A DNA stretch of 27,315 nt from a virus. The DNA lies in the IMG/VR virus record IMGVR_UViG_3300042521_000446, positions 1-27,315 of that record; one strand, written 5' to 3'. The notes beneath the pieces were generated by a model. That model was given only the letters and a program-made list of their open reading frames with translations. It searched no databases and had not been told where the DNA came from. Every line of letters begins with the position of its first letter. The stretch's first letter is position 1. The position numbers and the translations under genes are program-made. Positions 1 through 19,067 of the stretch are shown piece by piece.

Positions 1-58
1 TCACACCAAAGGTGCGCGTGCCTTGGTAGTTCCAGCTAACACGGTCGCCGCGTTTCAC
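1..58 (-). CDS. 5' fragment of small DUF2945-like protein (runs off the window)
   Basis: The first 19 codons are visible, from a GTG that forms a GTGA overlap with the stop of the upstream 22-aa gene. The visible residues begin VKRGDRVSWNYQGTRTFG. This resembles the start of the small DUF2945/hypervariable-A1 family (K-x-G-D-x-V-S-W-N-Y), whose function is unknown to me. It is the most downstream visible gene of the leftward packaging/head operon. The rest lies outside the window, so length and C-terminus are unknown. Confidence 0.5.
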   Translation of the reverse strand, partial: MKRGDRVSWNYQGTRTFGV

Positions 59-123
59 TTTTTCTTGCCTCCTTTCTTAGGCATGGGCTTTTGAGGCTTG
101 GCTGGTCCGGTGTACTTAGGCAT
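55..123 (-). CDS. 22-aa basic small protein
   Basis: A 22-codon ORF beginning MPKYTGPAKPQ and ending in a lysine/glycine run (KKGGKKK). It starts 4 nt after the stop of the upstream 47-aa gene, and its TGA overlaps the GTG of the next gene as GTGA. Tight packing on both sides is the main argument that it is translated. Very basic micro-proteins of this type recur near phage head genes; nucleic-acid binding is possible but unproven. Confidence 0.55.
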   Translation of the reverse strand: MPKYTGPAKPQKPMPKKGGKKK

Positions 124-127
124 GGCC

Positions 128-271
128 TTAGCGCTTGGGTTTACGTTTGCGGCTTTTGCCGGCTTTTGCGTACGCGATGGCTGCCGCTTGGGCTGGCGTT
201 TTGCCGGCCTTGATCTCGCGGCGGATGTTCTCCGAGATGACCTCCTGAGACTTACCGCGCTTTAACGGCAC
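128..271 (-). CDS. 47-aa basic conserved phage protein (GTG start)
   Basis: A GTG-initiated ORF of 47 aa reading VPLKRGKSQEVISENIRREI, then KAGKTPAQAAAIAYAKAGKS and a terminal R/K-rich run. It matches a recurring small phage protein pattern (MPLKKGKS..vIs.NI..E.kaGkp..QAvAIAl), usually located near head genes. It overlaps the end of the MuF-like gene by 20 nt. A predicted central helix followed by a highly basic tail suggests nucleic-acid or head-interior association, but no function is established. The start is inferred from the family pattern and not from a strong Shine-Dalgarno. Confidence 0.7.
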   Translation of the reverse strand: MPLKRGKSQEVISENIRREIKAGKTPAQAAAIAYAKAGKSRKRKPKR

Positions 272-1475
272 CGTATCGAGCCCGCAACTGATCCAAGGTT
301 AGCTCTGACCCATCGTCGCGGACCAGCTTGGCGAGTGCGTTTTGCGGTCCATACTTTTCAGACAGCTTGCGAAAATAAGGGACTTTGCCCGCGCCAAGCG
401 CGGTTGCTTGGCGAGCTAGTAGATCGGCGTCCGTTTCTCCTGGCCGCTTTGCCTTTAGCCATTCTCCGTAACTAACGTTTGCCGGCACCATGCCGCCTGC
501 TGCAGCGCGTTTACTCGGCGGCGGCGGGGCAAAGCCTAAGGCGTCATAATCGATCACCGGAACGGTCGTGCTGCGACAGTTGAAGTGCTGCGGCGGCGTT
601 GGACCCTTGCCGTATTCAAACTCTTGGCCATCCAGCGCCCGGCAGATCGCGCTGGTGCGGGTGTCAAGCGTAGCGACGTACCGATAACGCGGTGTGATGT
701 CCTGGTTCGCCTCGTACACCTGCTGGCTGGCGGTATTGGCCACTTGATTGATGCTCGTGCGAACGAGGGCGATGACTTGATTGTCGGCTACGGCTGTTGC
801 CTGCCCGCCTGCGGCGATAAGCTGCTTGACGGTTTTGGCCTCCTCGCCAAACTGCAGGCTGCCGATCAGCCGCTTAGCAATAGCAGGAGTCGGCTCGCCG
901 GTCAGCAGTCCTTGGCGGACGACCTGCGAGAACCGCTCGGCTTGATCAACGGCAATGCCACGGAACGCCTTGCTGACCACCTCGCCATTGGGCAACGTGA
1001 TCGTGGCACCTTGGGCAGCGGTCAGGCTGAAAGTTGCCGGTGCGCCCTGCACTGCGGCGAACAGGTCATCACTAAGCGCCACCACGTTGATTTGGGTTGG
1101 GTCAGTTGTGACCACCGACTGCGCAAACTGCGGGCTGATCTCCACGGTGCGTACTGCATCACGGGCACCAGCAGGCAATGCACGTTGCAACTGATCGGCC
1201 ACAAACTCAGACTGCAACTGCGCGATGCCCTGCAGCTCGGTTGCGGTTATTTCGGTTGCGTCACCAGCCCAGGTTGCAAGGCTGTCCTTTAGCTGCGCAA
1301 GGATCGCCCGCAGTCTGGCAGCCTTGACCGGAGCGGCTAGCTCATCAATAGTGCGGAGCTGATTGACCGCATCAATGATGATGTCGTTATAGGCATTGAT
1401 GATGCGCCGGCCAACGCTATTGCTGAACCTGTTTAGGTCAATGGCGTTGCGGTATAGCGATTCTGGTGTTGACAT
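252..1475 (-). CDS. MuF-like phage head morphogenesis protein
   Basis: 407 aa. Residues about 262-308 carry the hallmark of the Mu gpF/SPP1 gp7 minor head protein family: RYVATLDTRTSAICRALDGQ, then GPTPPQHFNCRSTTVPV, with the paired cysteines of the fold (C278, C300). Family members are minor head proteins made next to the portal and present inside or at the neck of the capsid; some are linked to DNA injection. The N-terminal 250 residues are mostly helical and poorly conserved. The ATG overlaps the preceding stop as TAATG. The order terminase, portal, MuF supports the call. The C-terminal about 95 residues after the MuF motif show nothing recognised. Confidence 0.9.
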   Translation of the reverse strand: MSTPESLYRNAIDLNRFSNSVGRRIINAYNDIIIDAVNQLRTIDELAAPVKAARLRAILAQLKDSLATWAGDATEITATELQGIAQLQSEFVADQLQRALPAGARDAVRTVEISPQFAQSVVTTDPTQINVVALSDDLFAAVQGAPATFSLTAAQGATITLPNGEVVSKAFRGIAVDQAERFSQVVRQGLLTGEPTPAIAKRLIGSLQFGEEAKTVKQLIAAGGQATAVADNQVIALVRTSINQVANTASQQVYEANQDITPRYRYVATLDTRTSAICRALDGQEFEYGKGPTPPQHFNCRSTTVPVIDYDALGFAPPPPSKRAAAGGMVPANVSYGEWLKAKRPGETDADLLARQATALGAGKVPYFRKLSEKYGPQNALAKLVRDDGSELTLDQLRARYGAVKAR

Positions 1476-1684
1476 TAGATGATGCCTAGCTGATCGGGGC
1501 GGTACTGCGACCTGATGCTTACATCAGCACCACGGGCAAGGGCGCCGTTAACCGCTGCCGCAAAGGCCTCATAGCCATTTTGGCCGTCCTCGTACAGCAC
1601 CACTTGGTCTACCTCATCAGCCTTGCCGCCTTTGTAATACTTCATGCGCACAATGGCCAGGATGTTATCCGGCAGCTCGCACAT
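1475..1684 (-). CDS. Small hypothetical protein between portal and MuF genes
   Basis: 69 aa from ATG at 1684 (MCELPDNILAIVRM...), ending in a TAATG overlap with the MuF-like gene. The frame is open further upstream through the end of the portal gene. An alternative ATG at 1735 would give 86 aa (MIWVEPKKPRKP...) and a 38-nt overlap with portal. The shorter form begins just after the portal stop and is preferred, but neither has a clear Shine-Dalgarno. Content such as YYKGGKADEVDQVVLYEDGQNG looks like a small mixed alpha/beta protein. Function unknown; the position suggests a head-assembly accessory. Confidence 0.65.
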   Translation of the reverse strand: MCELPDNILAIVRMKYYKGGKADEVDQVVLYEDGQNGYEAFAAAVNGALARGADVSIRSQYRPDQLGII

Positions 1685-1697
1685 GGTGTAATCAATT

Positions 1698-3137
1698 TCA
1701 GGTTTCCTCGGTTTCTTCGGCTCCACCCAGATCATCACTGCTATCAACCAGTCTGTCAGGACGTCCAGCATCCGATAGGTCAAGCCCCGCATTGGATGTG
1801 GCCTCCAGCTCCTCGTCCACATCAAAGTTATCGCCCAACACGTCGCCTTCCGCAAGCTCGCGGAGCAATGTCTCCTGCGAGATGGTGCCAGCGGTGTACA
1901 GCGACAGCAGCGCGGCGATGTCCTGCGGTTCAAGGCGTGCGCCGAGGAAGTCACGGTTGACGTAGGCGCTGCCGGCGGCAGTGGCATTGCCGAGGTACTG
2001 CGCGTGAAACTGCAGGCAGTTGTCGATCATGTCCTGCATGTTTTGCGCAATCACCATCATGGTGCTGTCGCCTTGGCTGCGGTCAATGCGCTTTGCCTCA
2101 GCGGTCTCGGCGCTCAGCTTCTGACCTAGCACTGCGGACAGGCCAAGCTCATTGATCTGCAACGCAAGCTGCTCAAGCCGGCGGAACTGCGCCTCGAAGC
2201 TGCGGCCTGCTGGTTCGATGTACTCAGCGCGGCCTTCAGCAGGAAATGCAATCGCCTCGCCGGGTCCGGCTGATACTTCCTCAGCGCTTGACGGGAAGCC
2301 GAACAGCGCCAGCATGGGCACCGCTGAGACATGGAGGATATTGTCGAGGTCTGACTGGATCTGATAGGTCTTTAGGTTCAGCTCTGCGATGTCTTCCAGC
2401 GGCGGGCGCGACTCCATAAAACCATGCCGTTGCGCGTAGGCAATGCTGAACGGGATTTGGCTAAGGCTGGTGCGGCCTTCATCGACAACGGTGAACTCAC
2501 CGCTGTCCTGCTTGCGGTGGATGCGGTACTCGCCAGGCGTTAGGACACGAACCTGCTCGACGGCTTTCTCGCCAAACTCGCCATCTGGCACTGTGACCAC
2601 TTCCGATAGCCGCAACTGGGTCAGCACTTGCTTGCCCTCTTGCGTCTCGGTGCGCCAGCCAAGGATCTGCCGGGGCGTGTAGGTCACCCAATAGGGTCGA
2701 CCCCCATTAGCCGGTGCATCCACCAATGTACCAATGTGGCCATAACGGACCATTTTGCGGGCTGCTTCATAGGTCCAGACATTGAGGTCATTGCCTTGCA
2801 GGTCTACGTCGAATAGTTGCTCGCGGATTGCGTCGGCGGTGTCATCCAGTCGGACGGGCTTGCGGGTCAGCATGCCGGCCAACATGCGCTCTAGGCGGAT
2901 GTAATACGGCGGGCAGACGCTACGAGCTAGGCGGTTGTCGTAGGACTCGTCTAGCTCGCGTGGTTCTTGCGGCAGGTAACGGCGATGCTTCTTGCGCATG
3001 CCGTAGGTGCCCTGCAGCAGATCCTCGATCAGGATCCAGTGTGGCTCTTGCGCGTACCAGCTTGTATTAGGGTCATTGACCTTCGATACGGTGCGCTGCG
3101 CTAGCGGCCGGTCATACGCATTAAAGCCTGTATACAC
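1698..3137 (-). CDS. Phage portal protein (DUF4055-like)
   Basis: 479 aa. The N-terminus (W-H-W-I-L-I-E-D-L-L-Q-G-T-Y-G-M-R-like segment, then YLPQEPRELDESYDNRLARS and a segment ending LAGMLTRKPVRL) matches the DUF4055 class of dodecameric portals as I remember it. The central region has LNLKTYQIQSDLDNILHVSA and the characteristic GPGEAIAFPAEGRAEYIEP stretch. The C-terminus (QDIAALLSLYTAGTISQETL) resembles the portal clip/wing helices. The final about 40 residues are acidic. A portal forms the DNA channel at the capsid vertex and the docking ring for TerL and the neck. It lies between TerL and MuF-like genes, as expected. Assignment to portal is strong; the exact family name is from memory. 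Confidence 0.9.
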   Translation of the reverse strand: MYTGFNAYDRPLAQRTVSKVNDPNTSWYAQEPHWILIEDLLQGTYGMRKKHRRYLPQEPRELDESYDNRLARSVCPPYYIRLERMLAGMLTRKPVRLDDTADAIREQLFDVDLQGNDLNVWTYEAARKMVRYGHIGTLVDAPANGGRPYWVTYTPRQILGWRTETQEGKQVLTQLRLSEVVTVPDGEFGEKAVEQVRVLTPGEYRIHRKQDSGEFTVVDEGRTSLSQIPFSIAYAQRHGFMESRPPLEDIAELNLKTYQIQSDLDNILHVSAVPMLALFGFPSSAEEVSAGPGEAIAFPAEGRAEYIEPAGRSFEAQFRRLEQLALQINELGLSAVLGQKLSAETAEAKRIDRSQGDSTMMVIAQNMQDMIDNCLQFHAQYLGNATAAGSAYVNRDFLGARLEPQDIAALLSLYTAGTISQETLLRELAEGDVLGDNFDVDEELEATSNAGLDLSDAGRPDRLVDSSDDLGGAEETEET

Positions 3138-3166
3138 GACCGCTAACTGCTGACAATGATGTCAGT

Positions 3167-3310
3167 TTACGGCTTCAGCCCCTGATGGCAGGCCGGGTGG
3201 TTGTGATGCGCTTGCACGGCCTGGTCACGGCCGACGCTGATGCCAACGCCGTACATCATGAACAGCAGCGTCAGGGCTGCAAAGCGATTGAGCCAGGGGT
3301 TGGTGGTCAT
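3167..3310 (-). CDS. Small single-pass membrane protein
   Basis: 47 aa from ATG at 3310: MTTNPWLNRFAALTLLFMMY continuing to GVGISVGRDQAV. The frame is open further upstream, but that extension is GC-rich shadow sequence overlapping terL, so the internal ATG is preferred. Residues about 9-29 form one hydrophobic membrane segment, followed by a His-containing hydrophilic tail. It sits between terL and portal on the same strand. Holin or membrane-accessory roles are possible, but location away from the lysozyme argues against the main holin. Function unknown. Confidence 0.6.
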   Translation of the reverse strand: MTTNPWLNRFAALTLLFMMYGVGISVGRDQAVQAHHNHPACHQGLKP

Positions 3311-3381
3311 GGTTGGGATGGTAGGTGGGCGGCCGACTGGCCGTGAGCAAAAGATACCAGCGTTTGCCGCCGTGGTCAACC

Positions 3382-4731
3382 CTAGTAAAGCCGAATGCCC
3401 GTGCTCCGGCCAGCGCCAGCGTGCAGCGGGTTGAACTCGCGCCACACCAGGTAGCCGAGCGCGTCGTTCATGTGGTCAAAGCCCGCGTCCTTGTCCGGCT
3501 CGCCCTTGTCGGTGTAGCACTGCAGCTCTAAGCATTCGATGACCCGCTTGCAAGTTTCTGACACCTGCAACCTGACCTGCCCTTTGCCGTTTTCCAGCAA
3601 AGCCTGAACAGCAGCCACCCGATCACGAACGGGAGGATTTGCTCGCGGTGACTGGTTGGACATGCCATAGCTCTCAAGGATCTGCACATCGGTCTGGCTT
3701 GCGTTGGTGCTGCGGTTGCCGCCGCTGGCATCTGGGTAGGCGTACATCCGCCTATCGGGGTAGCGCCTGATCACCTCCTGCGCCAGTGCGTCGGTGTCGT
3801 GGGCGCCGCTGATCTCATCAATCACCAGCAGGCTGCTGCCAATCCTGATAGCGATCACCGCCGACATGTTGCCAACGTTAAAGTCAACGCCAACCCTTAG
3901 GGGTTCGCGGTCAGTATCCGGCAGCTCGCTGACCACATGCTTCGCCCGGTCGAAACGGTCATAGACCTGCCCGGTTGTCAGGTTGACAAACTCTCCGTCT
4001 AGGTACGCCCGCAGCAGGCTTGGGTCGTAGTTGGCTTCCAGCCGCTCGATGAAATCCGGTGGTAGGTGCGGATTGTCAACGGTGCGCATCTTGATCAGAT
4101 GCCGGTCAGGCCTTGCCTTGGCCTCGTCGCTGCCGAAGGTGTTCCACATCCACCGGAAGCCCTCTGGCGTCGATGCCGCGCCAAACTGCCGGACATTGCC
4201 GCTGCGGAGTCGGCCAAGGATTTTGGGGAATGCCTTATTAGCAATGCTGGGCGTCACCGTATCAATCTCATCAGCCAGCACCCAGGCAAGGTTTAAACCG
4301 ATGATGCGGCTCCAGTTCTCAAAGCTGCGGCACAGGATCTTGGTGTCACCGCCCGGCAGGTGCAGCATGTACTCCGGCAGCGGGCTAGCCCTGAAGGTGT
4401 ACGGGATGTCGTACGCCTCTAGAAACGCCTCGAAGTCCGTCTGCCAGATGTCGCGGATCAGCGGTCCGGTCGGCTCCATGACGCAGCCGATAAAGCCCTG
4501 ATTGACCGCCGCCAGCATCACCGCTTTGGCGCATAGCGCCCTGGTCTTGCCAGCGCCATACCCCGCGCTGATGCCAAGGATCTGCGTTGCGGTGTCATCG
4601 ACAAACGCAAGCTGGCCGGGGTGCAGGTCGCTTCTGATACGCGCAAGCAGGGCATCTACATCAGTCAGCTCACCGCCGTGGTTGAGCTGCATGAGCACAT
4701 GCCCTTCACGGGCTGCAGCAAGAATGCTCAT
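3382..4731 (-). CDS. terL: Terminase large subunit (ATPase/nuclease)
   Basis: 449 aa DNA-packaging motor. Walker A is GYGAGKT (57-63), Walker B is VLADEID (151-157), and the coupling motif is ASTPEG (186-191). The C-terminal RNase H-like nuclease shows GVDFNVGNMSAV (D283), VIDEISG (E306), YPDASGG (D334) and a final FDHMNDALGYLVW (D419, D423). These acids would coordinate two metals to cut concatemeric DNA while the ATPase drives translocation into the prohead at the portal. Start ATG forms an ATGA overlap with terS. Length is normal for the family. All catalytic residues appear intact. Confidence 0.96.
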   Translation of the reverse strand: MSILAAAREGHVLMQLNHGGELTDVDALLARIRSDLHPGQLAFVDDTATQILGISAGYGAGKTRALCAKAVMLAAVNQGFIGCVMEPTGPLIRDIWQTDFEAFLEAYDIPYTFRASPLPEYMLHLPGGDTKILCRSFENWSRIIGLNLAWVLADEIDTVTPSIANKAFPKILGRLRSGNVRQFGAASTPEGFRWMWNTFGSDEAKARPDRHLIKMRTVDNPHLPPDFIERLEANYDPSLLRAYLDGEFVNLTTGQVYDRFDRAKHVVSELPDTDREPLRVGVDFNVGNMSAVIAIRIGSSLLVIDEISGAHDTDALAQEVIRRYPDRRMYAYPDASGGNRSTNASQTDVQILESYGMSNQSPRANPPVRDRVAAVQALLENGKGQVRLQVSETCKRVIECLELQCYTDKGEPDKDAGFDHMNDALGYLVWREFNPLHAGAGRSTGIRLY

Positions 4732-5051
4732 GAGCAGAGCTGCGCCAGTTTGGCTGCGGTATTGATCGCACCAAGGGCAATGTGATACTGCCCAGCCCGC
4801 CTAGCTTCCATCTGCAAAGTGCTGCACTGGCTCAGCAGATCAGCCACCATTTGCGGGCGTTCAATGTCCCAATCAGCCTTGAGCTGGTCGCGGGCCATTG
4901 CGAGGTATTTATCGCAAGACCGTTCACCAACCCCCCAATTTTCGGCAGCATAGCGAACACAGTCAGACCTGCGCCCACCACTTGCAATGATGCGAGCAAA
5001 GCGTTGAGCGCGTAACTGAGTTTCTGCTTGTGTGCCCTTGGGGGCGGCCAT
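4728..5051 (-). CDS. terS: Terminase small subunit (putative)
   Basis: 107 aa, directly upstream of and overlapping terL by ATGA. Residues about 10-60 (LRAQRFARIIASGGRRSDCV, then a helix ending SCDKYLAMARDQL) look like the helix-turn-helix DNA-recognition part of small terminases. The C-terminal part is helical (LLSQCSTLQMEARRAGQYHI), as in the oligomerisation region. Small terminases recognise pac/cos sites and stimulate TerL. Sequence alone is weakly diagnostic; the position immediately before terL makes the call. Its ATG overlaps the methyltransferase stop as TAATG, coupling packaging to the DNA-modification/replication genes upstream. Confidence 0.8.
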   Translation of the reverse strand: MAAPKGTQAETQLRAQRFARIIASGGRRSDCVRYAAENWGVGERSCDKYLAMARDQLKADWDIERPQMVADLLSQCSTLQMEARRAGQYHIALGAINTAAKLAQLCS

Positions 5052-6238
5052 TAGAACGCCTCCTTTGTTTCCTCAAGGGTAGCGAGCTTGCCGGTAAATG
5101 CCTGCCACCGTTGAACGATCACGTCGCAGTAGGCGGGGTCGAGTTCCATGAGGCGGGCATGGCGATGCTGGCGTTCGCAGGCGATAAGCGTGCTGCCACT
5201 ACCGCCAAAAAAGTCAAGGATGACGTGTCCGCGTTTTGTGGTGGTATCAAGTGCCAGCTCAGCGAGGGCTACTGGCTTTTGCGTTGGGTGAACGTAATCC
5301 GTCGCACGGTCCTTGCCAATGTCCCAAACAGAGCCGATGCGCTTTCCGGTGAGGGATGCGCCCCTGTTGAAAACCAGCGCAATCTCATGGTCTGTCAAAT
5401 AGGTTTTCTGGAGGTCGCCAATGCCACCGCCGCCTTTATCCCATACGACCATGTTAGTCAAGGGTGCAAAGTCTTTAGTCGCATCTAACCACTGATCAAG
5501 GACTTTCCAGGTTGTCCAGATAAAGCAGAAGCCAGAGGAGAAGGCAGTGGCGAGTGGGATCCAGTCAGTGATGATCTTGTCATCGTTTTCCAGTACTGCG
5601 AACTTAGCTGACTTTGTTCGCATGTTGGATTGATAGCTCATCCCATAAGGCGGATCAGTGAACACCATGTCGGCCTTCTGCCCATCCATCAACCGCTCAA
5701 CAGCTAGCACGTCAGTGCTATCCCCGCAAAGCAAGCGGTGATCGCCAAGGATCCAGAGGTCGCCAAGCTTGGTGACCGGCTCTTCTGGCGCCTCAGGTAC
5801 ATCATCGGCATCGGTCAAACCCTCGGCGGGTAACTCCTCAACGGTGCCAAGGATCTCGGCTAGGTCATCGGCGTCAAACCATGGCGCTAAGTCATGCTCT
5901 GCGCTGAGCTGCTGCAGCATGTCCTTGTCCCAATCAGACAGGTCACTGGTGCGGTTGTCGGCCAAAGCGAGGCCGATCTTCTCGTCTTCGGTTAAGCCCG
6001 TGCGCTTGACAGCGATGATTTCGGTGCCATCGGTTTCGATGACCCGGACATTCTTGATGCCTGCTGCCTTGGCGCCTTCAATGGTGCCGTTACCAGCAAG
6101 GATGCGGTTCTCTTCGTCGATGACAATGCTGCGTGCGGCACCAAAACGCTGCAGCGACTCAGCAATGAGCTTGGCTGAGCGGTCTGTCCGCTTGCGGGCG
6201 TTTTTGTGATCGGACTTTAAATCCTTGATGGATGTCAT
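5051..6238 (-). CDS. ParB-domain DNA methyltransferase (N4/N6, beta-type order)
   Basis: 395 aa. Residues about 1-130 form a ParB/Srx-like N-terminal domain (IAESLQRFGAARSIVIDEEN, then RILAGNGTIEGAKAAG). The methyltransferase domain carries catalytic TDPPYGM (194-200), HPTQKPV (317-323) and the AdoMet-binding LDFFGGSGSTLIACE (341-355), followed by ELDPAYCDVIVQRW. DPPY before FxGxG is the beta-group order of adenine-N6 or cytosine-N4 methylases. It likely modifies phage DNA, for host-restriction evasion or marking. No partner restriction enzyme is adjacent. Start overlaps the dnaN stop as ATGA; its stop overlaps terS as TAATG. The specific base methylated cannot be told from sequence. Confidence 0.93.
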   Translation of the reverse strand: MTSIKDLKSDHKNARKRTDRSAKLIAESLQRFGAARSIVIDEENRILAGNGTIEGAKAAGIKNVRVIETDGTEIIAVKRTGLTEDEKIGLALADNRTSDLSDWDKDMLQQLSAEHDLAPWFDADDLAEILGTVEELPAEGLTDADDVPEAPEEPVTKLGDLWILGDHRLLCGDSTDVLAVERLMDGQKADMVFTDPPYGMSYQSNMRTKSAKFAVLENDDKIITDWIPLATAFSSGFCFIWTTWKVLDQWLDATKDFAPLTNMVVWDKGGGGIGDLQKTYLTDHEIALVFNRGASLTGKRIGSVWDIGKDRATDYVHPTQKPVALAELALDTTTKRGHVILDFFGGSGSTLIACERQHRHARLMELDPAYCDVIVQRWQAFTGKLATLEETKEAF

Positions 6239-7275
6239 TCTCTGATTTGCACCGGCATGACCAGGTAGGTCATACCAGTTTTGTCTGCTGGCTGCAATGT
6301 TACAGGGGTCGTGGCTGAATTGGCCGAAAGCAGCACGGCTTCGTTACCGCGCATGGCTTTGAGGCCATCAAGCAGGTAATGGACATTGAACGCCCATGCG
6401 CCGGTGCCGTCGCCGTCGTAGTCAAGGCGCTCCTTGCCATTGTTGGCATCAGCCTCGGCGGTGATGACCACATAGCCATCGACTGCAGTGAGCTTGACAA
6501 CTGAGTTGTGCGCCTCTGCGATCAGCGCGACACGCTCCAGGCACCGGGCAAAGCGGTGCCGGTCCAGGGTCATGGTGTGCTCAAAGCTGGCGGGCACCAG
6601 CGCTGCCACATCGGGGTACTTGCCATCAAGGATGCGGCTGTAGATGGTGATGCCATCACCGGCATCGATGACGGCCTGACCGGCTGCTGCTGCCACGGTG
6701 ACGGTGCGATCCTGCAGCAGCTTCATCGTGCTGGCGGGTAGCACCAGGTCAATGCCGTCTGGTAGCGCTACGGGGATGCGCATGAGCCGGTGGCCGTCAG
6801 TGGCCTCCATGTAGCCGGCTGCCATGTGAATGCCGGAGAGCATGGCCTTGCTGATGTCGGTACTGCAACACGGCAGGCAGGCGCGTACACCGTCGGATAG
6901 CGATAGCTCAGCGCCAGGTGCCTCTACAACGGGCATGGCGGGGAAATCCTCAGCATCCATCGCTGCAAGGCCGTAGGACGCGCCACAGGCCGTCAGAGCG
7001 CCATCTGACAGGGTGAGCACCTCGCCATCCTCAAAGCGGCTTACAAGCCCCGCTAGCAGCCTGTGCGGCAACGCGACGGTGCCAGGTGCCTCTACAGCTG
7101 CGGGGACCGTGACGCTGATGCCAAGGTCCAGGTTGAAGCCGGTGACGGTCATGGTTGCGCCATCGGCAGCAAGCAGGCAGCAGCTCAAGATCGGGTGGCT
7201 GTTGCTGGTGCTGATGGCTGGGGCAATGGTGCGTAGCGCATGGGCGAGGTCGCCCTGTGTGGTAATGAGCTTCAT
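6235..7275 (-). CDS. dnaN: DNA polymerase III beta sliding clamp (DnaN-type)
   Basis: 346 aa from ATG at 7275 (MKLITTQGDLAHALRTIAPA). Upstream codons are open, but this ATG makes an ATGA overlap with the DUF3310 gene and matches the family start. Three clamp repeats are visible: an N-terminal SNSHPILSCCLLAADGATMTV, a central SGIHMAAGYMEATDGHRLMR, typical of domain II (a T-DGHRL segment), and a C-terminal TGMTYLVMPVQIRE, matching the bacterial YVVMPMRL-type end that lines the partner-binding pocket. Length is slightly below the usual 360-370. The ring clamps DNA and tethers the polymerase. Clamp-encoding phages of this bacterial type are uncommon. No phage polymerase is in the window, so it would act with the host enzyme or with one encoded outside. 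Confidence 0.92.
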   Translation of the reverse strand: MKLITTQGDLAHALRTIAPAISTSNSHPILSCCLLAADGATMTVTGFNLDLGISVTVPAAVEAPGTVALPHRLLAGLVSRFEDGEVLTLSDGALTACGASYGLAAMDAEDFPAMPVVEAPGAELSLSDGVRACLPCCSTDISKAMLSGIHMAAGYMEATDGHRLMRIPVALPDGIDLVLPASTMKLLQDRTVTVAAAAGQAVIDAGDGITIYSRILDGKYPDVAALVPASFEHTMTLDRHRFARCLERVALIAEAHNSVVKLTAVDGYVVITAEADANNGKERLDYDGDGTGAWAFNVHYLLDGLKAMRGNEAVLLSANSATTPVTLQPADKTGMTYLVMPVQIRE

Positions 7276-7475
7276 TGGTGCAGGTGTGTGAGATACCAAG
7301 CAGCCTTGGCTAGGTCAATGTCGCCAGCCTTAAGCCTCTCGCGCCAGCAGTATTTCATAACATTGCCTTTGATGTAACCGCGCCATTCCTCTGGTGTGAG
7401 TGCTGCGCGGATTGCATCAATGCATTCAATGCTGCTGCTGGTGTAGTGACTTGGGTGGTCAACGGGATCCGACAC
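7272..7475 (-). CDS. DUF3310 family protein
   Basis: 67 aa: VDHPSHYTSSSIECIDAIRA, later YIKGNVMKYCWRERLKAG and DLAKAAWYLTHL. This is the conserved pattern of DUF3310, a small protein commonly found among phage nucleotide-metabolism and replication genes (V-x-HPxHY, ECID, GN-x-K-Y-x-WR). Complete with both halves of the motif. ATGA overlap couples it to dnaN. Biochemical role not established; association with deoxynucleotide metabolism has been suggested by context only. Confidence 0.88.
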   Translation of the reverse strand: MSDPVDHPSHYTSSSIECIDAIRAALTPEEWRGYIKGNVMKYCWRERLKAGDIDLAKAAWYLTHLHQ

Positions 7476-7671
7476 TGGCCGCTTGGGTGAGGTAAAGGAT
7501 TATGCGGTCGTAATCAGCGGCAAAGCTGGCGACCAGTTCAGCAGGGATGGGCACGCCGTCATCGGTGGCATTATCCACAACTGCGGCGGCATAAGCAAGT
7601 GCATGGTCCATGGTGTCGCTGAGGCGATTCAGGACTGGTTGCTGCTTGGGTGAGGTGTTGACGAGATCCAT
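7459..7671 (-). CDS. Small hypothetical protein
   Basis: 70 aa from ATG at 7671. A second ATG at 7611 would give a 50-aa product beginning MDHALAYAAAVVDNATDDGV. It overlaps the RHH gene upstream by 43 nt (or not at all with the shorter start) and the DUF3310 gene by 17 nt. Acidic, mostly helical, with no motif I recognise. Overlaps and codon-like composition support translation; function unknown. Confidence 0.6.
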   Translation of the reverse strand: MDLVNTSPKQQPVLNRLSDTMDHALAYAAAVVDNATDDGVPIPAELVASFAADYDRIILYLTQAASVGSR

Positions 7672-7904
7672 GTGATGACATAAGCGACAAGCTGCTCAAC
7701 CATGCGGCGTGGGATGTCCCCGCGCACATTGGTAAGCGCATCGGACACTAGCCGGTGATAACCAGCAACGGTAAGGCCACTGTCGCAATTCGACACCAAC
7801 GCCCGGCTGCGGATCAACTCCGCACGGGACAGCCCAGCCGCTGCGGCCTGCTGGTCTAGTGCCAACAGGTCAGGCTCTTCAAAACGGACTTTGACTTCAC
7901 GCAT
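7629..7904 (-). CDS. Ribbon-helix-helix (CopG/MetJ-like) DNA-binding protein
   Basis: 91 aa. The first about 45 residues fit an RHH fold: a beta strand REVKVRFEE, helix LLALDQQAAAAGL, then S-RAELIRSRAL, where the turn and second helix begin. RHH proteins dimerise and insert the paired beta strands in the DNA major groove. The remaining half is helical (YHRLVSDALTNVRGDIPRRM) and may be an oligomerisation tail. It is the first gene after the repeat-rich non-coding stretch at 7905-8190, so it is a reasonable candidate to bind those repeats. That link is inference. Confidence 0.7.
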   Translation of the reverse strand: MREVKVRFEEPDLLALDQQAAAAGLSRAELIRSRALVSNCDSGLTVAGYHRLVSDALTNVRGDIPRRMVEQLVAYVITWISSTPHPSSNQS

Positions 7905-7936
7905 CAGGCGGGCTCCAAAGGCGGCAGATTAGGGCA

Positions 7937-8190
7937 TGTCCCACCCAAAACGCAGGTAGGGCAGAAGTGGGACAGGGCAGTTCCCATGCAGCGCAGGCGT
8001 TCTCGGCATCCGTCCTACCTTCCTCTCCTACTCTTAAAGAGTAATAAAAAGAAGAGAAGGAAAGGGCGCGTAGGGGATTCTGCGAAGTAGGTAGGACACT
8101 GGCAGGTAGGGATGATTGCCCCAAACCTCTTGCGCCAGAAAGGATCTCAGGGATTTTGAGGTAGGACACCATCCCCACCTAGGTAGGACA
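7937..8190. repeat. Cluster of AGGTAGGACA repeats in a 286-bp non-coding stretch
   Basis: Three exact plus-strand copies of AGGTAGGACA lie at 8089-8098, 8159-8168 and 8181-8190. One-mismatch or partial copies are AGGTAGGGCA at 7954, AGGTAGGG at 8104 and AGTGGGACA at 7966. Inverted forms are CGTCCTACCT at 8011-8020 and TGTCCCACC at 7937. A 15-bp inverted repeat (8029-8043) sits in the middle. The copies lie between the primase-helicase stop and the next leftward gene. Iteron-like origin, operator array or a decayed repeat-coding 3' tail are all possible. Confidence 0.65.
8029..8043. repeat. 15-bp palindrome TACTCTT-A-AAGAGTA
   Basis: A perfect inverted repeat with 7-bp arms and a single central base, AT-rich, in a GC-rich genome. 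Flanks are also partly complementary (CCTTC.CTCT on the left, AGAGAAGG on the right), so a longer imperfect hairpin of about 50 nt can form. It lies within the AGGTAGGACA repeat cluster. It could be an operator or an unwinding element; lack of a following T-run on the minus strand makes a simple terminator unlikely. Confidence 0.5.
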
Positions 8191-10233
8191 TCACCGCCGG
8201 TAGACGTAAGCCCTGCTTCCGCCGATACTGCCTCGGTAACGCCTGTAACCCAGCCGCTTGAGCACGTCCGCCACTTGCATCTGATCACCCCTGCTTTGGC
8301 GTTCAACGGGCTTTTTAATGGCATCGGTGAGCAACTTCTCAGTGGTAATGTCCGTAAGTGGATTCTTCTTTAACCAAGCTTCAATTTCAGCCTGCCAAGG
8401 ATTGTCCACGACGTAAGATTCGTTTTCGCTTGCAAGCAGGCGTTCCATGTCAGCAGGCAGCCTGCTGGTCTCACCATTGCGGTATGCAGCAACAGCGGCG
8501 GACCATATTGCATCACGCTCCAGTAATAGCGCGGCGGTGTCAATTTGGTCAGCCTGCGTCTTGGTTGTGGGTATGACCCAGAACCGCCGGTTGCCAGTTT
8601 CATCCACCAAAAAGCCGGTGGTTCGGTTAGTCGTGCCAACAATGATTCCGCGCCTAGGGAATGCTTCAGTTGACTTGCCGTAAGGCACGCGGAACATATC
8701 AACCGCCTGCGATAGGAACGCTTTGACTTGACCGGCGTGCTTGCGATTGGTTACATGGTCAAGCTCTGCCCACTCCATAATCCAAGAGCGGTGTAATACC
8801 ATCAGGTCATCTTTTGAGCTGATGTCACCTAAGGCATCACTGAAGAAGTCACCGGCAAGGCAGTTCCAGAATGATGACTTGTAAGCGCCTTGGTCGCCCA
8901 TGATCACGCAAGCGGTATCGTGCTTGCAACCAGGGTTGTAGGCACGTGCAACTGCACCGATGAGCGTGCGCTTTAGCATTTCGTCGTAGATGGTGCCTGG
9001 CGTGTCACTAGGTCGCAGGTAGCCAGTGGACAGCGCTTCGATGTAAGCAGGCGCAACGGTTGCGGCAACGCGGTCGAGGTACTCGACAACCGGGTCATAA
9101 GGCGACTCGTTAGCCACCTGCACAATGCAGTCCAGGGCAACCTCCTTGGAGACCTTGTAACCCATCTCTGCCAGGGTGAGGTAAAACCGCTCGGCGCCTT
9201 CAATGGGAGCGCCGTCTACTTCAATGCGCTGGGTGAAGGTGTTGTAGCGGTAGGCGCTGTCGCCGTGCCGCAGCAGGTTGAGCAGCTCTGCAGCATTCAT
9301 CGGCTGCAATTGCGGGTTCACCGCTGACGGCGGCTGCTTGCTTGCAGGCCGCTCACGGCGGACAGGCTCAAGTTGCTGCCGCCCGCGCCAACCATCTTGC
9401 TTGGCCAGTTGACCAAGGGTGCCAAGGGTGATGCCACCGCCAGACTTGAAGCCGCGCCACTTGTGTTCGCAGTCACCGGGCTTGAACTTGGATGACTGCG
9501 CTGACCAGTTGATCCAGTCAGCCAGCAGGGCATCGTCGACGCTGTGTAGTGCCATGCCCACCTCAAGCCACTGGTCATAGTCATCAGCGCGGCTGGGTTG
9601 CAGCGCTTCGAGGTATGACCGCGCTCGCGCTGTGTCGTCACTGCCGGCAGCAGTCATCAACGGCAACGGCGCCTGCACAGGCTGCCGTAGCATCCGCGCT
9701 AACAAATCCGCCGGTGCCTCAGCAATGTCCACATCGCTTGGCGATCGACCTGGCACCCAGCTATAGCCAGAGGTCAACGGGTGCGCACCGGCAATGACGG
9801 ACTGGCAGCCATCCCAGCGCAGCTCAACCTGTTCGGGCTTGCCTTCGCTGTCAATGACGCCAGTTTTGTACTTACGAGTGCGGATGTCTGCCCAGTACTG
9901 CTGAGGCACTTGGTAAATGATCTGAAACCGCCCGTCGCGGCCACTGGTTACGGTCCAAGACTGCGGCAACGAGCTGACCGGGATGCCCCATTCATCGAAC
10001 AGCCGCGACGCGGACTTGCCGTCATGGTCAACGAACAGCAGGCCACCGCTAAGGGTGCCGCAACAAACGCCAATTGCCTTGGCGCGGCCAGACTTCAGCT
10101 CATTGCCAAGCTGAGCGCGAGTGATGTGGCCATCCTGCCAATCTTTGATGTATGGCCGTTTTTCGCCATCAACTGGCACATAAGACCAGTCACGTGGCAG
10201 CTTCATGAGCTGCGCCAACAGGTCACTGCTCAT
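8191..10233 (-). CDS. Primase/helicase: bifunctional prim-pol N-terminus, PriCT-2, VapE-type helicase
   Basis: 680 aa. Residues about 10-180 resemble the bifunctional primase-polymerase domain (GVCCGTLSGGLLFVDHDGKS, acidic pair at D69/D71). Residues about 200-265 match a PriCT-2 linker (ARSYLEALQPSRADDYDQWL, then WRGFKSGGGI). The C-terminal half is the virulence-associated-E/VirE-type SF3-like ATPase: Walker A MGDQGAYKSSFW (445-456), Walker B SWIMEWAELD (483-492), sensor IVGTTNRTTGF (531-541) and ETGNRRFWVIP (545-555, arginine finger). It probably primes and unwinds at the phage origin. The start overlaps the 57-aa RHH gene as ATGA. No separate phage DNA polymerase is in the window. Confidence 0.9.
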   Translation of the reverse strand: MSSDLLAQLMKLPRDWSYVPVDGEKRPYIKDWQDGHITRAQLGNELKSGRAKAIGVCCGTLSGGLLFVDHDGKSASRLFDEWGIPVSSLPQSWTVTSGRDGRFQIIYQVPQQYWADIRTRKYKTGVIDSEGKPEQVELRWDGCQSVIAGAHPLTSGYSWVPGRSPSDVDIAEAPADLLARMLRQPVQAPLPLMTAAGSDDTARARSYLEALQPSRADDYDQWLEVGMALHSVDDALLADWINWSAQSSKFKPGDCEHKWRGFKSGGGITLGTLGQLAKQDGWRGRQQLEPVRRERPASKQPPSAVNPQLQPMNAAELLNLLRHGDSAYRYNTFTQRIEVDGAPIEGAERFYLTLAEMGYKVSKEVALDCIVQVANESPYDPVVEYLDRVAATVAPAYIEALSTGYLRPSDTPGTIYDEMLKRTLIGAVARAYNPGCKHDTACVIMGDQGAYKSSFWNCLAGDFFSDALGDISSKDDLMVLHRSWIMEWAELDHVTNRKHAGQVKAFLSQAVDMFRVPYGKSTEAFPRRGIIVGTTNRTTGFLVDETGNRRFWVIPTTKTQADQIDTAALLLERDAIWSAAVAAYRNGETSRLPADMERLLASENESYVVDNPWQAEIEAWLKKNPLTDITTEKLLTDAIKKPVERQSRGDQMQVADVLKRLGYRRYRGSIGGSRAYVYRR

Positions 10234-10403
10234 GACTCGCGGCGTCCCGTAGCAGGCAGCAGGCCTTGCTTGTCAAGGCGCATGGCCTGCTCGACTACGA
10301 GTCGCAGCACGGCACTACGGGACAAGCCAGCGACGCGACGGGCATCAAGCCAAGCAAGCTGTTCAGCCGTGAACTGGACCGAAAGCGGGTGAGCTAGCTC
10401 CAT
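10230..10403 (-). CDS. 57-aa ribbon-helix-helix protein, first gene of leftward operon
   Basis: A short ORF from ATG at 10403: MELAHPLSVQFTAEQLAWLD followed by ARRVAGLSRSAVLRLVVEQA. The pattern (beta strand LSVQFT, helix AEQLAWLDARRVA, then G-L-S-R-S-A-V-L-R helix) is a classic CopG/Arc-like RHH domain. The stop overlaps the primase-helicase ATG as ATGA. It is the first leftward gene, 17-20 nt from a candidate promoter containing a dyad, so autoregulation of the divergent control region is a natural inference. Confidence 0.75.
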   Translation of the reverse strand: MELAHPLSVQFTAEQLAWLDARRVAGLSRSAVLRLVVEQAMRLDKQGLLPATGRRES

Positions 10404-10420
10404 GGGTTTTAGCGGTGGGC

Positions 10421-10449
10421 TTGCGCAGCCTAGCGCTTTTTGCTAAGGT
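10421..10449 (+). promoter_or_regulatory. Rightward promoter candidate for HNH/helicase operon
   Basis: TTGCGC (10421-10426) and TAAGGT (10444-10449) are spaced by 17 nt, and a TG extension precedes the -10 (TGC before TAAGGT). Predicted start about 10456, 16 nt before ATG at 10472. A near-perfect dyad, CCTAGC (10429-10434) and GCTAAGG (10442-10448), lies inside the promoter and could be an operator for the RHH protein. Confidence 0.5.
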
Positions 10450-10454
10450 TGCAA
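10427..10454 (-). promoter_or_regulatory. Leftward promoter candidate for primase-helicase operon
   Basis: On the minus strand, TTGCAA (10454-10449) and TAGGCT (10432-10427) are separated by 16 nt, with predicted start near 10420 and the RHH ATG at 10403. Both boxes deviate from consensus at one or two positions. It physically overlaps the rightward candidate. Confidence 0.45.
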
Positions 10455-10471
10455 GGCCACCAGCAGTGCCA

Positions 10472-10981
10472 ATGACCAAATCAGTCCCATTACCACCTCT
10501 TGAGGTGATTACAGAACTTATTCAGTACGATCAGGAAACCGGATTTTTTTCTTGGAAAAAGGCTGCAGGAGGAAAAACTGCAGGAGCCGAAGCTGGTTGT
10601 ATTGATGCCAATGGATACAAGCGCATCAGGATTAATGGCCGCAAATATCAAGCGCAAAGACTGGCTTGGCTATTGGCGACAGGAGAAGACCCTGGCGACT
10701 TTCATGTTGACCACATTAATTCAAATCCAAGTGACAATTCATTTGTTAATCTTCGGTTGGCAAGTAATACAGAAAATGCCTGCAATCGCGGCGCTCCAAA
10801 AAATAGCAGCAGCGGCTACAAAGGCGTAAGCTGGAAAAAATCGAAAAACAAATGGAATGCGCAAATACAATCAAATGGCGTAAAAAAGAATCTTGGATAT
10901 TTTGATACGGCAGAGGATGCTCACGCCGCTTATTGCAAAGCATCTCAACAGTTGCACGGAGTTTTTGCTAGAGGATTATGA
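10472..10981 (+). CDS. HNH endonuclease with C-terminal AP2 DNA-binding domain
   Basis: 169 aa from ATG at 10472; the frame is open from a GTG at 10415, but that would overlap the promoter. HNH core at residues 79-98: VDHINSNPSDNSFVNLRLAS (D80-H81, N89, N93). An AP2-like module follows at 115-158, containing GYKGVSWKKSKNKWNAQI and later YFDTAEDAHAAYCKA. HNH-AP2 proteins are typical free-standing homing endonucleases of phages. The gene is visibly more A/T-rich than its neighbours, consistent with recent acquisition. It overlaps the helicase start as ATGA, so it is the promoter-proximal gene of the operon. Confidence 0.92.
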   Translation: MTKSVPLPPLEVITELIQYDQETGFFSWKKAAGGKTAGAEAGCIDANGYKRIRINGRKYQAQRLAWLLATGEDPGDFHVDHINSNPSDNSFVNLRLASNTENACNRGAPKNSSSGYKGVSWKKSKNKWNAQIQSNGVKKNLGYFDTAEDAHAAYCKASQQLHGVFARGL

Positions 10982-12345
10982 ACCTCCGCCCCTACCAGCA
11001 ACAACTCATCACCGATATCCGCCTGCAGTACCAGCTCGGCAAGCGCACAGTGCTAGCAGTGCTGCCAACCGGCGGCGGCAAGACGGTGTGCTTCAGCTAT
11101 ATCGCCCAGTCCGCCGCCAAAAAAGGCAACCGCGTCTGCATACTTGTCCACCGCGCAGAGCTGCTGGACCAGGCCAGCCGCAGCCTTACGGCTATGGGCG
11201 TGACGCATGGCCGCATCGCAGCAGGCCGCAACATGGACCTAAGCCATGCGGTGCAGGTGGCCAGTGTGCAGACCCTTGCCCGGAGGCTGCACAAGCTGCC
11301 GGGGGAGTTCTTTCAGCTCTTGGTGGTGGACGAGGCGCACCACACCAATGCAGGCCAGTGGGCGACGGTCATTCGCCATTTCCAAATAGCGCACGTTTTA
11401 GGAGTGACAGCGACGCCATGCCGTGGTGACGGTCGTGGGCTTGGTGACCACTATGAGGCCATGGTGCAGGGCCCCAGCGCTGCGTGGCTGACCGATAACG
11501 GCTACCTAGCCAATGCTCGCGTGCTGGCACCGCCGGGGTTTGACACTGCCGGGCTGCGCAAGAAGATGGGCGACTTTGACGCCAAGCAAGCAGAGGAGCG
11601 CGTCGGGACCATCATGGGCGACTGCGTTAGCCACTACCGCAAGCACCTGGCAGGGCAGACAGCTATCGCCTTCTGCTGCTCAGTGGCGCATGCCGAAGCG
11701 GTTGCGGCGCTATTCATGTCCCAGGGCATCCCAGCCGCCAGCATTGATGGCACCATGACCACCGACCAGCGCAGAGACCTGTTAACAGCATTGGGCACTG
11801 GCCGCATCAAGGTGCTGACCAGTTGCAGCTTGATTGGCGAGGGCGTAGACGTGCCCAGCGTCGGCGGCTGCATCCTGCTCAGGCCAACGCAGAGCGTCAG
11901 CCTGCATTTGCAAATGATCGGCCGCTGCCTGAGGCCAAGCCACGGCAAGACCGCTGTGGTGCTGGACCATGTGGGCAACACGCTCAGGCTAGGGCATCAC
12001 CTTGAGGACCGCGACTGGACACTGGATGGTGCCAAAAAGCGCGACCGCGAGCAAGCGCCCAGCGTCAAGGTGTGCCCGGTGTGCTTCGCTACCAGCATGA
12101 GCGCCACACAGGTCTGCCCTGACTGCGGGCATGTGTTCGCCCCGCAGGAGGCCAGGGAGCTAAAGGTGGTCGAGGGTGAGCTGCAGGAGTTGCAACGCCA
12201 GCAACGCCGCGAACAAGGCAACGCGCAAACTCTGCAACAACTCATTGCGCTAGGTCAGCAAAGAGGCTACAAAAACCCGGTGGCATGGGCAAAGCATGTT
12301 CTGGCCGCCCGTCAAACCAAAGGACAATGGAGCAAAGTCAAATGA
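10978..12345 (+). CDS. DEAD/DEAH-box superfamily 2 DNA helicase
   Basis: 455 aa SF2 helicase of the ResIII/RadD-like type. Q-like start LRPYQQQLI (3-11), motif I PTGGGKT (30-36), motif Ia-like LVHRAELLDQA (57-67), motif II VVDEAHH (116-122), motif III GVTATPCRGD (142-151), motif V-like IGEGVDVP (286-293) and motif VI QMIGRCLRP (312-320). C-terminal Cys4 zinc ribbon CPVC...CPDC (366-383). Likely ATP-dependent remodeling of replication or recombination intermediates. ATGA overlaps at both ends show tight coupling. Confidence 0.93.
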   Translation: MNLRPYQQQLITDIRLQYQLGKRTVLAVLPTGGGKTVCFSYIAQSAAKKGNRVCILVHRAELLDQASRSLTAMGVTHGRIAAGRNMDLSHAVQVASVQTLARRLHKLPGEFFQLLVVDEAHHTNAGQWATVIRHFQIAHVLGVTATPCRGDGRGLGDHYEAMVQGPSAAWLTDNGYLANARVLAPPGFDTAGLRKKMGDFDAKQAEERVGTIMGDCVSHYRKHLAGQTAIAFCCSVAHAEAVAALFMSQGIPAASIDGTMTTDQRRDLLTALGTGRIKVLTSCSLIGEGVDVPSVGGCILLRPTQSVSLHLQMIGRCLRPSHGKTAVVLDHVGNTLRLGHHLEDRDWTLDGAKKRDREQAPSVKVCPVCFATSMSATQVCPDCGHVFAPQEARELKVVEGELQELQRQQRREQGNAQTLQQLIALGQQRGYKNPVAWAKHVLAARQTKGQWSKVK

Positions 12346-18053: not shown

Positions 18054-19067
18054 ATGGCCGACAGCATCAAAGACTACCTCAACAGTATCGCCAAATATCC
18101 ACTACTGACACCGCAACAAGAGATACAACTCGGCAGGCGTGTCATTAGATGGCAAGAATTAAGACAATGCGACAGGGAGCTAACCCGTGATGAGCAACGC
18201 GAGTTGCGAAGCGGTGAACGCGCTAGGCAACGGTTTATTAAGTCCAACCTGCAGCTTGTAGTCCATGTAGCCCGCAAGTACGACAAGCGCAGCAATAAGA
18301 CGCTTGAGTTGATGGACTTGATCCAAGAGGGCAATATCGGCCTTGCGCGTGCGGTTGAGCTATTCGACCCGTCACGCGGTTACAAGTTTTCAACTTATGC
18401 CTATTGGTGGATCAGGCAAGGCATTACGCGGGCATTGATCCAGCATGACTCCATAATTCGCCTGCCAACCAGTTTGCATGAGATGCTGTACAAGATAAAC
18501 CGCACCATGCAGGATCTAAGCCATAAGATCGGCAGACAGCCAACCATGAGCGAAATATCTAACGCACTGGATATGGATGTAGAAGAACTGTCATACTTGT
18601 TAAAGCAAACCTATAAAGTGACAAGCCTAGACCAGCGTGTTGCTGACACCGAGACCACATGCATCGGTGACAACATTGCTGACCCTAACTACGACAATGA
18701 CCTGATAGAAACCCGGCAAGAGATACGCGAATTGATGGATTGTTTTAACAAATACTTAGACCCGTTGACCAAACAGGTAATCCATGCCAGAAACCTTGCG
18801 CGGCCTGTCACCTGGGCGCAACTTGAACAACAAACAGGCGTCAGCCGCACCAAGCTGCAAAACCTAGAGCGTCGTGGCATTAGCCGCCTTCGTATGCTGA
18901 TGAGCAACCCATTAAGCAATACCCCGCTTGGCCATGTCGAAACCAACAATCAGCCGCTATCAGGATGTATGGAGGGTTTGCTTCAACGGTATGTGCCGAG
19001 AGCACAGGCAGCAGTGGCAAGCACTGATTTTTTACCATCAGATGCTCAATCAACCAACCAATCCTGA
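18054..19067 (+). CDS. RpoD-family (cyanobacterial group-2-like) sigma factor
   Basis: 337 aa. Region 1.2 DSIKDYLNSIAKYPLLTPQQ (3-22), regions 2.1-2.4 with SNLQLVVHVARKYDKRS, MDLIQEGNIGLARAVELFDP, YKFSTYAYWWIRQGITRAL (about 64-129), region 3 SLHEMLYKINRTMQDLSHKI, and a shortened region 4 (LDPLTKQVIHARNLARPVTW, then SRTKLQNLERRGISRLRML, 236-283). Region 4 is present but divergent from the usual LREREVL...GVSRERVRQIE. Likely redirects host RNA polymerase to phage promoters. The last about 50 residues are low-complexity-like and overlap another ORF. Confidence 0.92.
   Translation: MADSIKDYLNSIAKYPLLTPQQEIQLGRRVIRWQELRQCDRELTRDEQRELRSGERARQRFIKSNLQLVVHVARKYDKRSNKTLELMDLIQEGNIGLARAVELFDPSRGYKFSTYAYWWIRQGITRALIQHDSIIRLPTSLHEMLYKINRTMQDLSHKIGRQPTMSEISNALDMDVEELSYLLKQTYKVTSLDQRVADTETTCIGDNIADPNYDNDLIETRQEIRELMDCFNKYLDPLTKQVIHARNLARPVTWAQLEQQTGVSRTKLQNLERRGISRLRMLMSNPLSNTPLGHVETNNQPLSGCMEGLLQRYVPRAQAAVASTDFLPSDAQSTNQS

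What the first reader, a model, noticed from the sequence alone, without database searches (positions are those of the whole stretch)
7937..8190. Iteron-like AGGTAGGACA cluster with a central palindrome next to the primase-helicase
Three exact 10-bp copies and several degenerate direct and inverted copies lie within 254 bp, around a 15-bp AT-rich inverted repeat. The stretch has no convincing gene. Direct repeats plus an easily melted dyad beside a replicative primase-helicase are what a phage origin often looks like. An RHH gene at the downstream side could instead use the repeats as an operator array. A third possibility is a decayed 3' end of the primase-helicase coding region, since the copies translate as CPT/VLP-like strings.
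Basis: partly seen in the sequence, partly recalled or inferred. Interest (0 to 1): 0.6.

Follow-up and report, generated by a model that had tools for sequence, protein, structure and literature searches.

The report
Cyanophage replication origin beside its primase-helicase
The repeat cluster is very probably the phage's replication origin: repeated docking sites around an easily melted centre, which the neighbouring primase-helicase appears to recognise with its tail domain, because the repeat sequence and two amino acids of that domain change together across related phages.

Summary
The 254 bp between the primase-helicase stop codon (8191) and the RHH gene carries about 8 copies of an iteron around an AT-rich core, far above chance.

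Relatives settle what it is. In 116 distinct flanks from the first scans, the same position 3' of the primase carries such arrays: mean 8.9 iterons per 330 bp, against 1.35 in primase coding DNA. Left copies face one way and right copies the other. The iteron sequence differs by lineage, but follows the primase's C-terminal winged helix, not the rest of the protein. Iteron base 6 (A versus C/T) tracks wing residue 665 in 58 of 60 representatives, through about 15 changes on a tree built without that domain, and in 20 of 21 held-out loci. Base 3 tracks residue 674, less strictly.

The RHH gene lies downstream in only 9 of 60 representatives. No reading frame is conserved.

Best explanation: an iteron origin of the SaPI/PICI kind, also annotated 3' of the primase in phage Sfi21, bound by the initiator's C-terminal domain. 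The kind is known; the cyanophage family and the wing-residue/iteron-base correspondence appear new. Binding and replication were not tested. The central palindrome is not conserved; the AT-rich core is.

The parts
8191..10233 (-). Primase-helicase (initiator), 680 aa: N-terminal primase part, PriCT-2, VapE/SF3-type helicase, C-terminal winged helix
   Evidence: PF05272 E=5e-64 and PF08707 E=6e-24; phmmer hit to SaPI5 PriRep1 7pds E=3.6e-27; full-length model best PDB match 7pds E=1.4e-20 over 442 columns
8194..8448 (-). Coding DNA of the C-terminal winged-helix domain (residues 596-680); wing residues R665 and R674 are the proposed base readers
   Evidence: AlphaFold model: three helices and a beta hairpin E664-670/E673-679; covariation
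7937..8190 (.). Predicted replication origin (iteron array with AT-rich core), directly 3' of the initiator gene
   Evidence: and conservation in relatives
8182..8190 (-). Iteron, direct: TGTCCTACC
8171..8179 (+). Iteron, inverted, degenerate: ATCCCCACC
8160..8168 (-). Iteron, direct: TGTCCTACC
8105..8113 (-). Iteron, direct, degenerate: ATCCCTACC
8090..8098 (-). Iteron, direct: TGTCCTACC
8034..8063 (.). AT-rich core (77% AT in 30 bp; fewer than 0.1% of 30-bp windows of the record are as AT-rich), candidate melting site
8029..8043 (.). 15-bp palindrome TACTCTTAAAGAGTA overlapping the core; not conserved in most relatives
8011..8019 (+). Iteron on the far side of the core, inverted: CGTCCTACC
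7955..7963 (-). Iteron, outer, direct: TGCCCTACC
7937..7945 (+). Iteron, outer, inverted: TGTCCCACC
7629..7904 (-). RHH gene (91 aa) downstream of the array; not a constant neighbour and probably not the binder
   Evidence: NikA-like PF21983 E=4e-5, below the curated cutoff; downstream in 9 of 60 representatives

Best explanation
7937-8190 is the phage's replication origin. The C-terminal winged-helix domain of the adjacent VapE/SF3-type primase-helicase binds iterons of the form nnnCY[ACT]ACCT (here TGTCCTACCT), with the wing hairpin (residues 665 and 674) reading bases 6 and 3. Two iteron sets in opposite orientation load two helicase rings that open the AT-rich core at about 8034-8063; the N-terminal primase part then starts DNA synthesis. 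Shown here: the iterons, their orientation, their conserved position 3' of the primase, and the covariation with two wing residues. Inferred: physical binding, double-ring loading, melting, and that replication starts here.
For: Arrays occupy the same place in 116 distinct flanks (mean 8.9 motif hits per 330 bp versus 1.35 in primase coding DNA), with position and orientation kept while the sequence changes. Orientation flips across the core: left 142 direct/55 inverted, right 70/167 over 58 representatives. Base 6 versus residue 665: 58 of 60 representatives concordant, top of 492 variable primase columns; 15 changes of each on a tree built without the C-terminal domain, independent pairs 9:0 with p=0.004; held-out loci 20 of 21. 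Base 3 versus residue 674: R with C 24 of 26, L with T 11 of 12, Q with G 8 of 9, held out 12 of 15. Iteron similarity follows the C-terminal domain after correcting for the rest of the protein (partial r 0.425, 0 of 999 permutations), not the reverse (-0.11). The model is a winged helix with both residues on the wing. Best whole-protein structural match is SaPI5 PriRep1. Precedents: SaPI Rep uses its C-terminal domain on iterons directly downstream of its gene, and the Cch2 C-terminal domain binds such a site (PMC7581432); PICI origins lie 3' of rep with two iteron sets flanking an AT-rich region (PMC6092414); Sfi21 has an annotated 302-bp origin directly 3' of its primase; phiFL4A, APSE-1 and PS3 show 9-11 iteron copies 3' of their VapE primases.
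Against: No binding or replication experiment. GC skew gives no clear inflection at the array in this window. The window itself carries R674 with T at base 3 in its exact copies, against the base-3 rule, and the L140/L215 group (LGYRKRR) and L357 break the base-6 rule. 28 of 172 loci were too mixed to call. The motif filter fixes C4 and ACC and excludes G at base 6. Related sequences are not independent; only about 10 well-supported switches exist. Iterons could also serve copy control rather than initiation.
Confidence: 0.87

Rival explanations
1. The iterons are a control or incompatibility site bound by the primase-helicase (like the second iteron site of phage P4), while initiation happens elsewhere.
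For: The binding evidence (covariation) does not by itself show initiation; from general knowledge, P4 has a second iteron site besides its origin. A free-standing winged-helix ORF homologous to the C-terminal domain sits beside the array in L029-L031, as a copy-control partner might.
Against: It is the only such cluster in the window; it has an AT-rich core between opposed iteron sets; sites with the same layout are functional origins in PICIs and one is annotated as an origin in Sfi21. The window is a fragment, so a second site outside it is not excluded.
Confidence: 0.06
2. The repeats are an operator array for the adjacent RHH gene.
For: An RHH gene starts about 32 bp beyond the last iteron in the window, and also lies downstream in its clade.
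Against: RHH lies downstream in 9 of 60 representatives; elsewhere the array is followed by unrelated genes. RHH proteins with the same EIKVRF strand go with different iteron bases (L017 versus L055). No sigma-70-like promoter in the region. In S-LBS1 an RHH-like short ORF (our reading) precedes the primase while the array still follows it.
Confidence: 0.04
3. The array is a DNA packaging (pac) site.
For: The large terminase gene is a few kb away in the window, and the S-LBS1 record begins with its small terminase next to the array.
Against: The neighbours change among relatives while the primase stays; the iteron sequence follows the primase C-terminal domain.
Confidence: 0.02
4. The region is a decayed 3' end of the primase or a small gene.
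For: ORFs of 93 and 96 aa overlap it; in L038, L040 and L047 the primase ends a few codons inside the first iteron.
Against: No conserved frame among relatives; conservation is in spaced motifs on both strands.
Confidence: 0.01

Closest known systems
SaPI/PICI replication origins (Rep or Pri-Rep plus ori)
   Same: [quoted passage not shown] nearest solved relative is SaPI5 PriRep1.
   Different: Here it belongs to tailed phages, probably of aquatic cyanobacteria, with iteron family nnnCY[ACT]ACCT; no replication test.
Streptococcus phage Sfi21 origin (annotated 302-bp non-coding origin)
   Same: Non-coding, AT-rich, repeat-flanked stretch directly 3' of the primase gene.
   Different: Unrelated repeat (GTTAC/GTAAC, by eye) and no significant BLASTP similarity between the primases.
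Phage P4 alpha protein and its winged-helix origin-binding domain
   Same: Primase-helicase with a winged-helix origin-binding domain (cited in PMC10516667).
   Different: No P4 sequence was tested; its iterons and two-site layout were not compared.
SCCmec Cch2 helicase and its putative origin
   Same: C-terminal domain binds repeats directly downstream of the gene (PMC7581432).
   Different: Only three 5-nt iterons there; no fused primase.
Synechococcus phage S-LBS1 (MG271909)
   Same: 52% identical primase and an iteron array (GCCTAACCT type) 3' of it.
   Different: Iteron base 6 is A with K665 in S-LBS1, C/T with R665 here; a term search of the genome paper finds no mention of iterons or repeats and no replication origin.

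Membership tests
SaPI/PICI-type iteron origin | Lies immediately 3' of the initiator gene | tested here: met
   Window 8190/8191 and 116 distinct relatives
[quoted passage not shown]
   left 142 direct/55 inverted, right 70/167; core median AT 0.70
SaPI/PICI-type iteron origin | C-terminal domain of the initiator recognises the iterons | tested here: inconclusive
   Covariation strongly supports it; binding not tested
SaPI/PICI-type iteron origin | Initiator plus origin replicate autonomously | not testable with these tools
   Needs a mini-replicon assay
SaPI/PICI element itself (satellite) | Carried by a satellite island that uses a helper phage | tested here: not met
   The window encodes its own large terminase, clamp, RecT and sigma factor and long structural-size ORFs; it reads as a phage, not a satellite
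VapE/SF3-type primase-helicase | VapE-like and PriCT-2 domains above curated cutoffs | tested here: met
   structural match to PriRep1
Classical iteron plasmid origin (RepA/DnaA type) | DnaA boxes within the origin | tested here: not met
   The only DnaA-box-like site in the window is at 7571, outside the array
RHH operator | Array travels with the RHH gene | tested here: not met
   RHH downstream in 9 of 60 representatives

The most novel reading that the evidence does not exclude
These phages hold a natural recognition code for a primase-helicase origin: wing residue 665 sets iteron base 6 (R with C/T; K, Q or S with A) and residue 674 sets base 3 (R with C, L with T, Q with G), and the C-terminal domain plus origin is exchanged or re-specified as one unit, many times. 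PICI-type origins would then be a general tailed-phage feature rather than a hallmark of satellites.
Probability: 0.7. Interest if true: 0.62.

Novelty: new member of a known kind. Interest (0 to 1): 0.55.

Why it matters
It places a candidate origin in a large family of uncultured phages and one cultured cyanophage, and offers a directly testable two-residue code for how a self-loading primase-helicase picks its origin. [quoted passage not shown] the same layout is seen here in many tailed phages. Rapid iteron change could reflect pressure from origin-targeting rivals, as reported for PLE and ICP1 (PMC8263062); that link is inference.

Tried and rejected
GC skew: uninformative in the window; in S-LBS1 the cumulative minimum falls at the array, but that is also the record's end, so weak. 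RNA families: none. Promoters and terminators: none. Central palindrome as a conserved element: rejected. RHH operator and decayed coding: rejected. A fold search with the C-terminal domain alone gave only weak generic winged-helix matches (best E 0.13; PriRep1 E 0.49), so the fold is taken from the model and the whole-protein match. Iteron base 5 had no clear partner residue. Three other phages with related primases (RcWhiteOak, LPPA36, PPpW-3) show no array directly 3' of the primase, so the layout is common but not universal. Literature searches found no report of this code, but most subscription papers are not covered.

Full report
Observation. The window is a 27,315-bp virus record. Between the stop codon of a 680-aa primase-helicase (8191-10233, minus strand) and an RHH gene (7629-7904, minus) lie 254 bp with three exact AGGTAGGACA copies and several degenerate ones. 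One 9-mer occurs six times with up to one mismatch; shuffles of the region reach at most four, and only one of 201 sampled 270-bp windows of the record reaches five. The 15-bp palindrome is at 8029-8043, overlapping an AT-rich core (77% AT over 8034-8063, matched by fewer than 0.1% of 30-bp windows).

Relatives. The primase found 80 related loci in IMG/VR in the first scan, and further scans with other family members raised the set to 172 distinct family loci with enough 3' flank. The nearest cultured relative is Synechococcus phage S-LBS1 (52% identity), and one hit lies in a Cyanobium metagenome-assembled genome, so the host is probably a picocyanobacterium (inference). In the first 116 distinct flanks nearly every one has an iteron array starting at or just after the primase stop; motif hits average 8.9 per 330 bp against 1.35 in 690 primase-coding windows (a few loci with divergent motifs, such as L137, L138 and L106, score low by this fixed motif). 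The iteron differs by lineage: TGTCCTACC in the window, TACCCCACC, TGCCCTACC, CGCCTAACC, TTGCCAACC, TTTCCAACC and others. Position and orientation are kept: left of the AT core 142 direct and 55 inverted copies, right of it 70 and 167.

Who binds. Scanning 492 variable columns of the primase alignment against iteron base 6 (A versus C/T) in 60 representatives under 90% identity, residue 665 ranks first (58 of 60 concordant). This residue was first seen by eye; the scan and the later tests followed. On a tree made without the C-terminal domain, base and residue class each change 15 times, and in independent pairs on supported branches they change together 9 times and never oppositely (p=0.004). 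Base 3 tracks residue 674: R with C (24 of 26 callable), L with T (11 of 12), Q with G (8 of 9); its tree test is weaker (median p 0.06). Rules fixed on this set were then applied to loci fetched later whose C-terminal sequences were new: base 6 correct in 20 of 21, base 3 in 12 of 15 (one of the 12 is S with G, which has thin backing in the first set). Iteron similarity correlates with C-terminal-domain identity after removing the rest of the protein (partial r 0.425; none of 999 permutations), and not with the rest of the protein after removing that domain (-0.11). The AlphaFold model makes this domain a winged helix, with 665 and 674 on the two strands of the wing hairpin (664-670, 673-679). 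The covariation is strongest in the wing, which suggests that the wing reads bases; this is inference.

What it is not. The RHH gene is downstream in only 9 of 60 representatives, all from the window's part of the tree; elsewhere the array is followed by unrelated genes, and RHH proteins with the same EIKVRF strand accompany iterons with different base 6. No frame is conserved.

Mechanism and known kin. The whole-protein model best matches SaPI5 PriRep1 bound to DNA, and phmmer finds the same entry. [quoted passage not shown] PICI origins show two iteron sets flanking an AT-rich region 3' of rep (PMC6092414). The Sfi21 record annotates a 302-bp origin directly 3' of its primase, and phages phiFL4A, APSE-1 and PS3 carry 9-11 iteron copies 3' of their VapE primases. 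So the element is a new member of a known kind. The likely sequence of events, inferred: winged helices bind the two opposed iteron sets, helicase rings assemble on each side of the core, the AT-rich core melts, and the primase part starts synthesis, with host or phage factors completing the fork.

Limits. Nothing was tested at the bench. The window itself breaks the base-3 rule (R674 with T3 in its exact copies). A few lineages (L140, L215, L357) break the base-6 rule. 28 of 172 loci were too mixed to call. The motif definition fixes part of the iteron, and relatedness limits the number of independent events to about ten well-supported ones. GC skew does not help in this window.

Noticed in passing
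L030:8322-8576 (also L029, L031): A free-standing winged-helix ORF of about 60-85 aa, homologous by eye to the primase C-terminal domain (same R at the 665 and 674 positions), sits between the array and the RHH gene, its stop overlapping the RHH start. It resembles a stand-alone partner such as P4 Cnr.
   Followed up: partly
IMGVR_UViG_3300044733_000695 (L007 at 1-11172; L365 at 47026-54089): One 73-kb contig holds two different primase-plus-array loci of the family, with different iteron types: two phages joined, a double prophage or an assembly join.
   Followed up: no
L081 (MG271909):34261-34387 and 34515-34641: The S-LBS1 record ends inside its iteron array with an exact 127-bp direct repeat, possibly an assembly artefact, so its copy count near the end may be inflated.
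   Followed up: partly
window 18054-19067 (+): Phage-encoded sigma-70 family factor (regions 1.2, 2 and 3); S-LBS1 carries an annotated cyanobacterial RpoD-like one.
   Followed up: no
window 6235-7299 (-): Phage-encoded DNA polymerase III beta-clamp homologue close to the predicted origin.
   Followed up: no
L165, L166, L162: Phages phiFL4A, APSE-1 and PS3 carry prominent iteron arrays 3' of their VapE primases (TGGATAC, GTTGTTACA and GGTCACCCC types) that are not among the annotated features shown.
   Followed up: partly
L163 (PPpW-3): No array 3' of the primase, but another 330-bp window of the locus reaches 13 copies of one 9-mer; its place was not examined.
   Followed up: no
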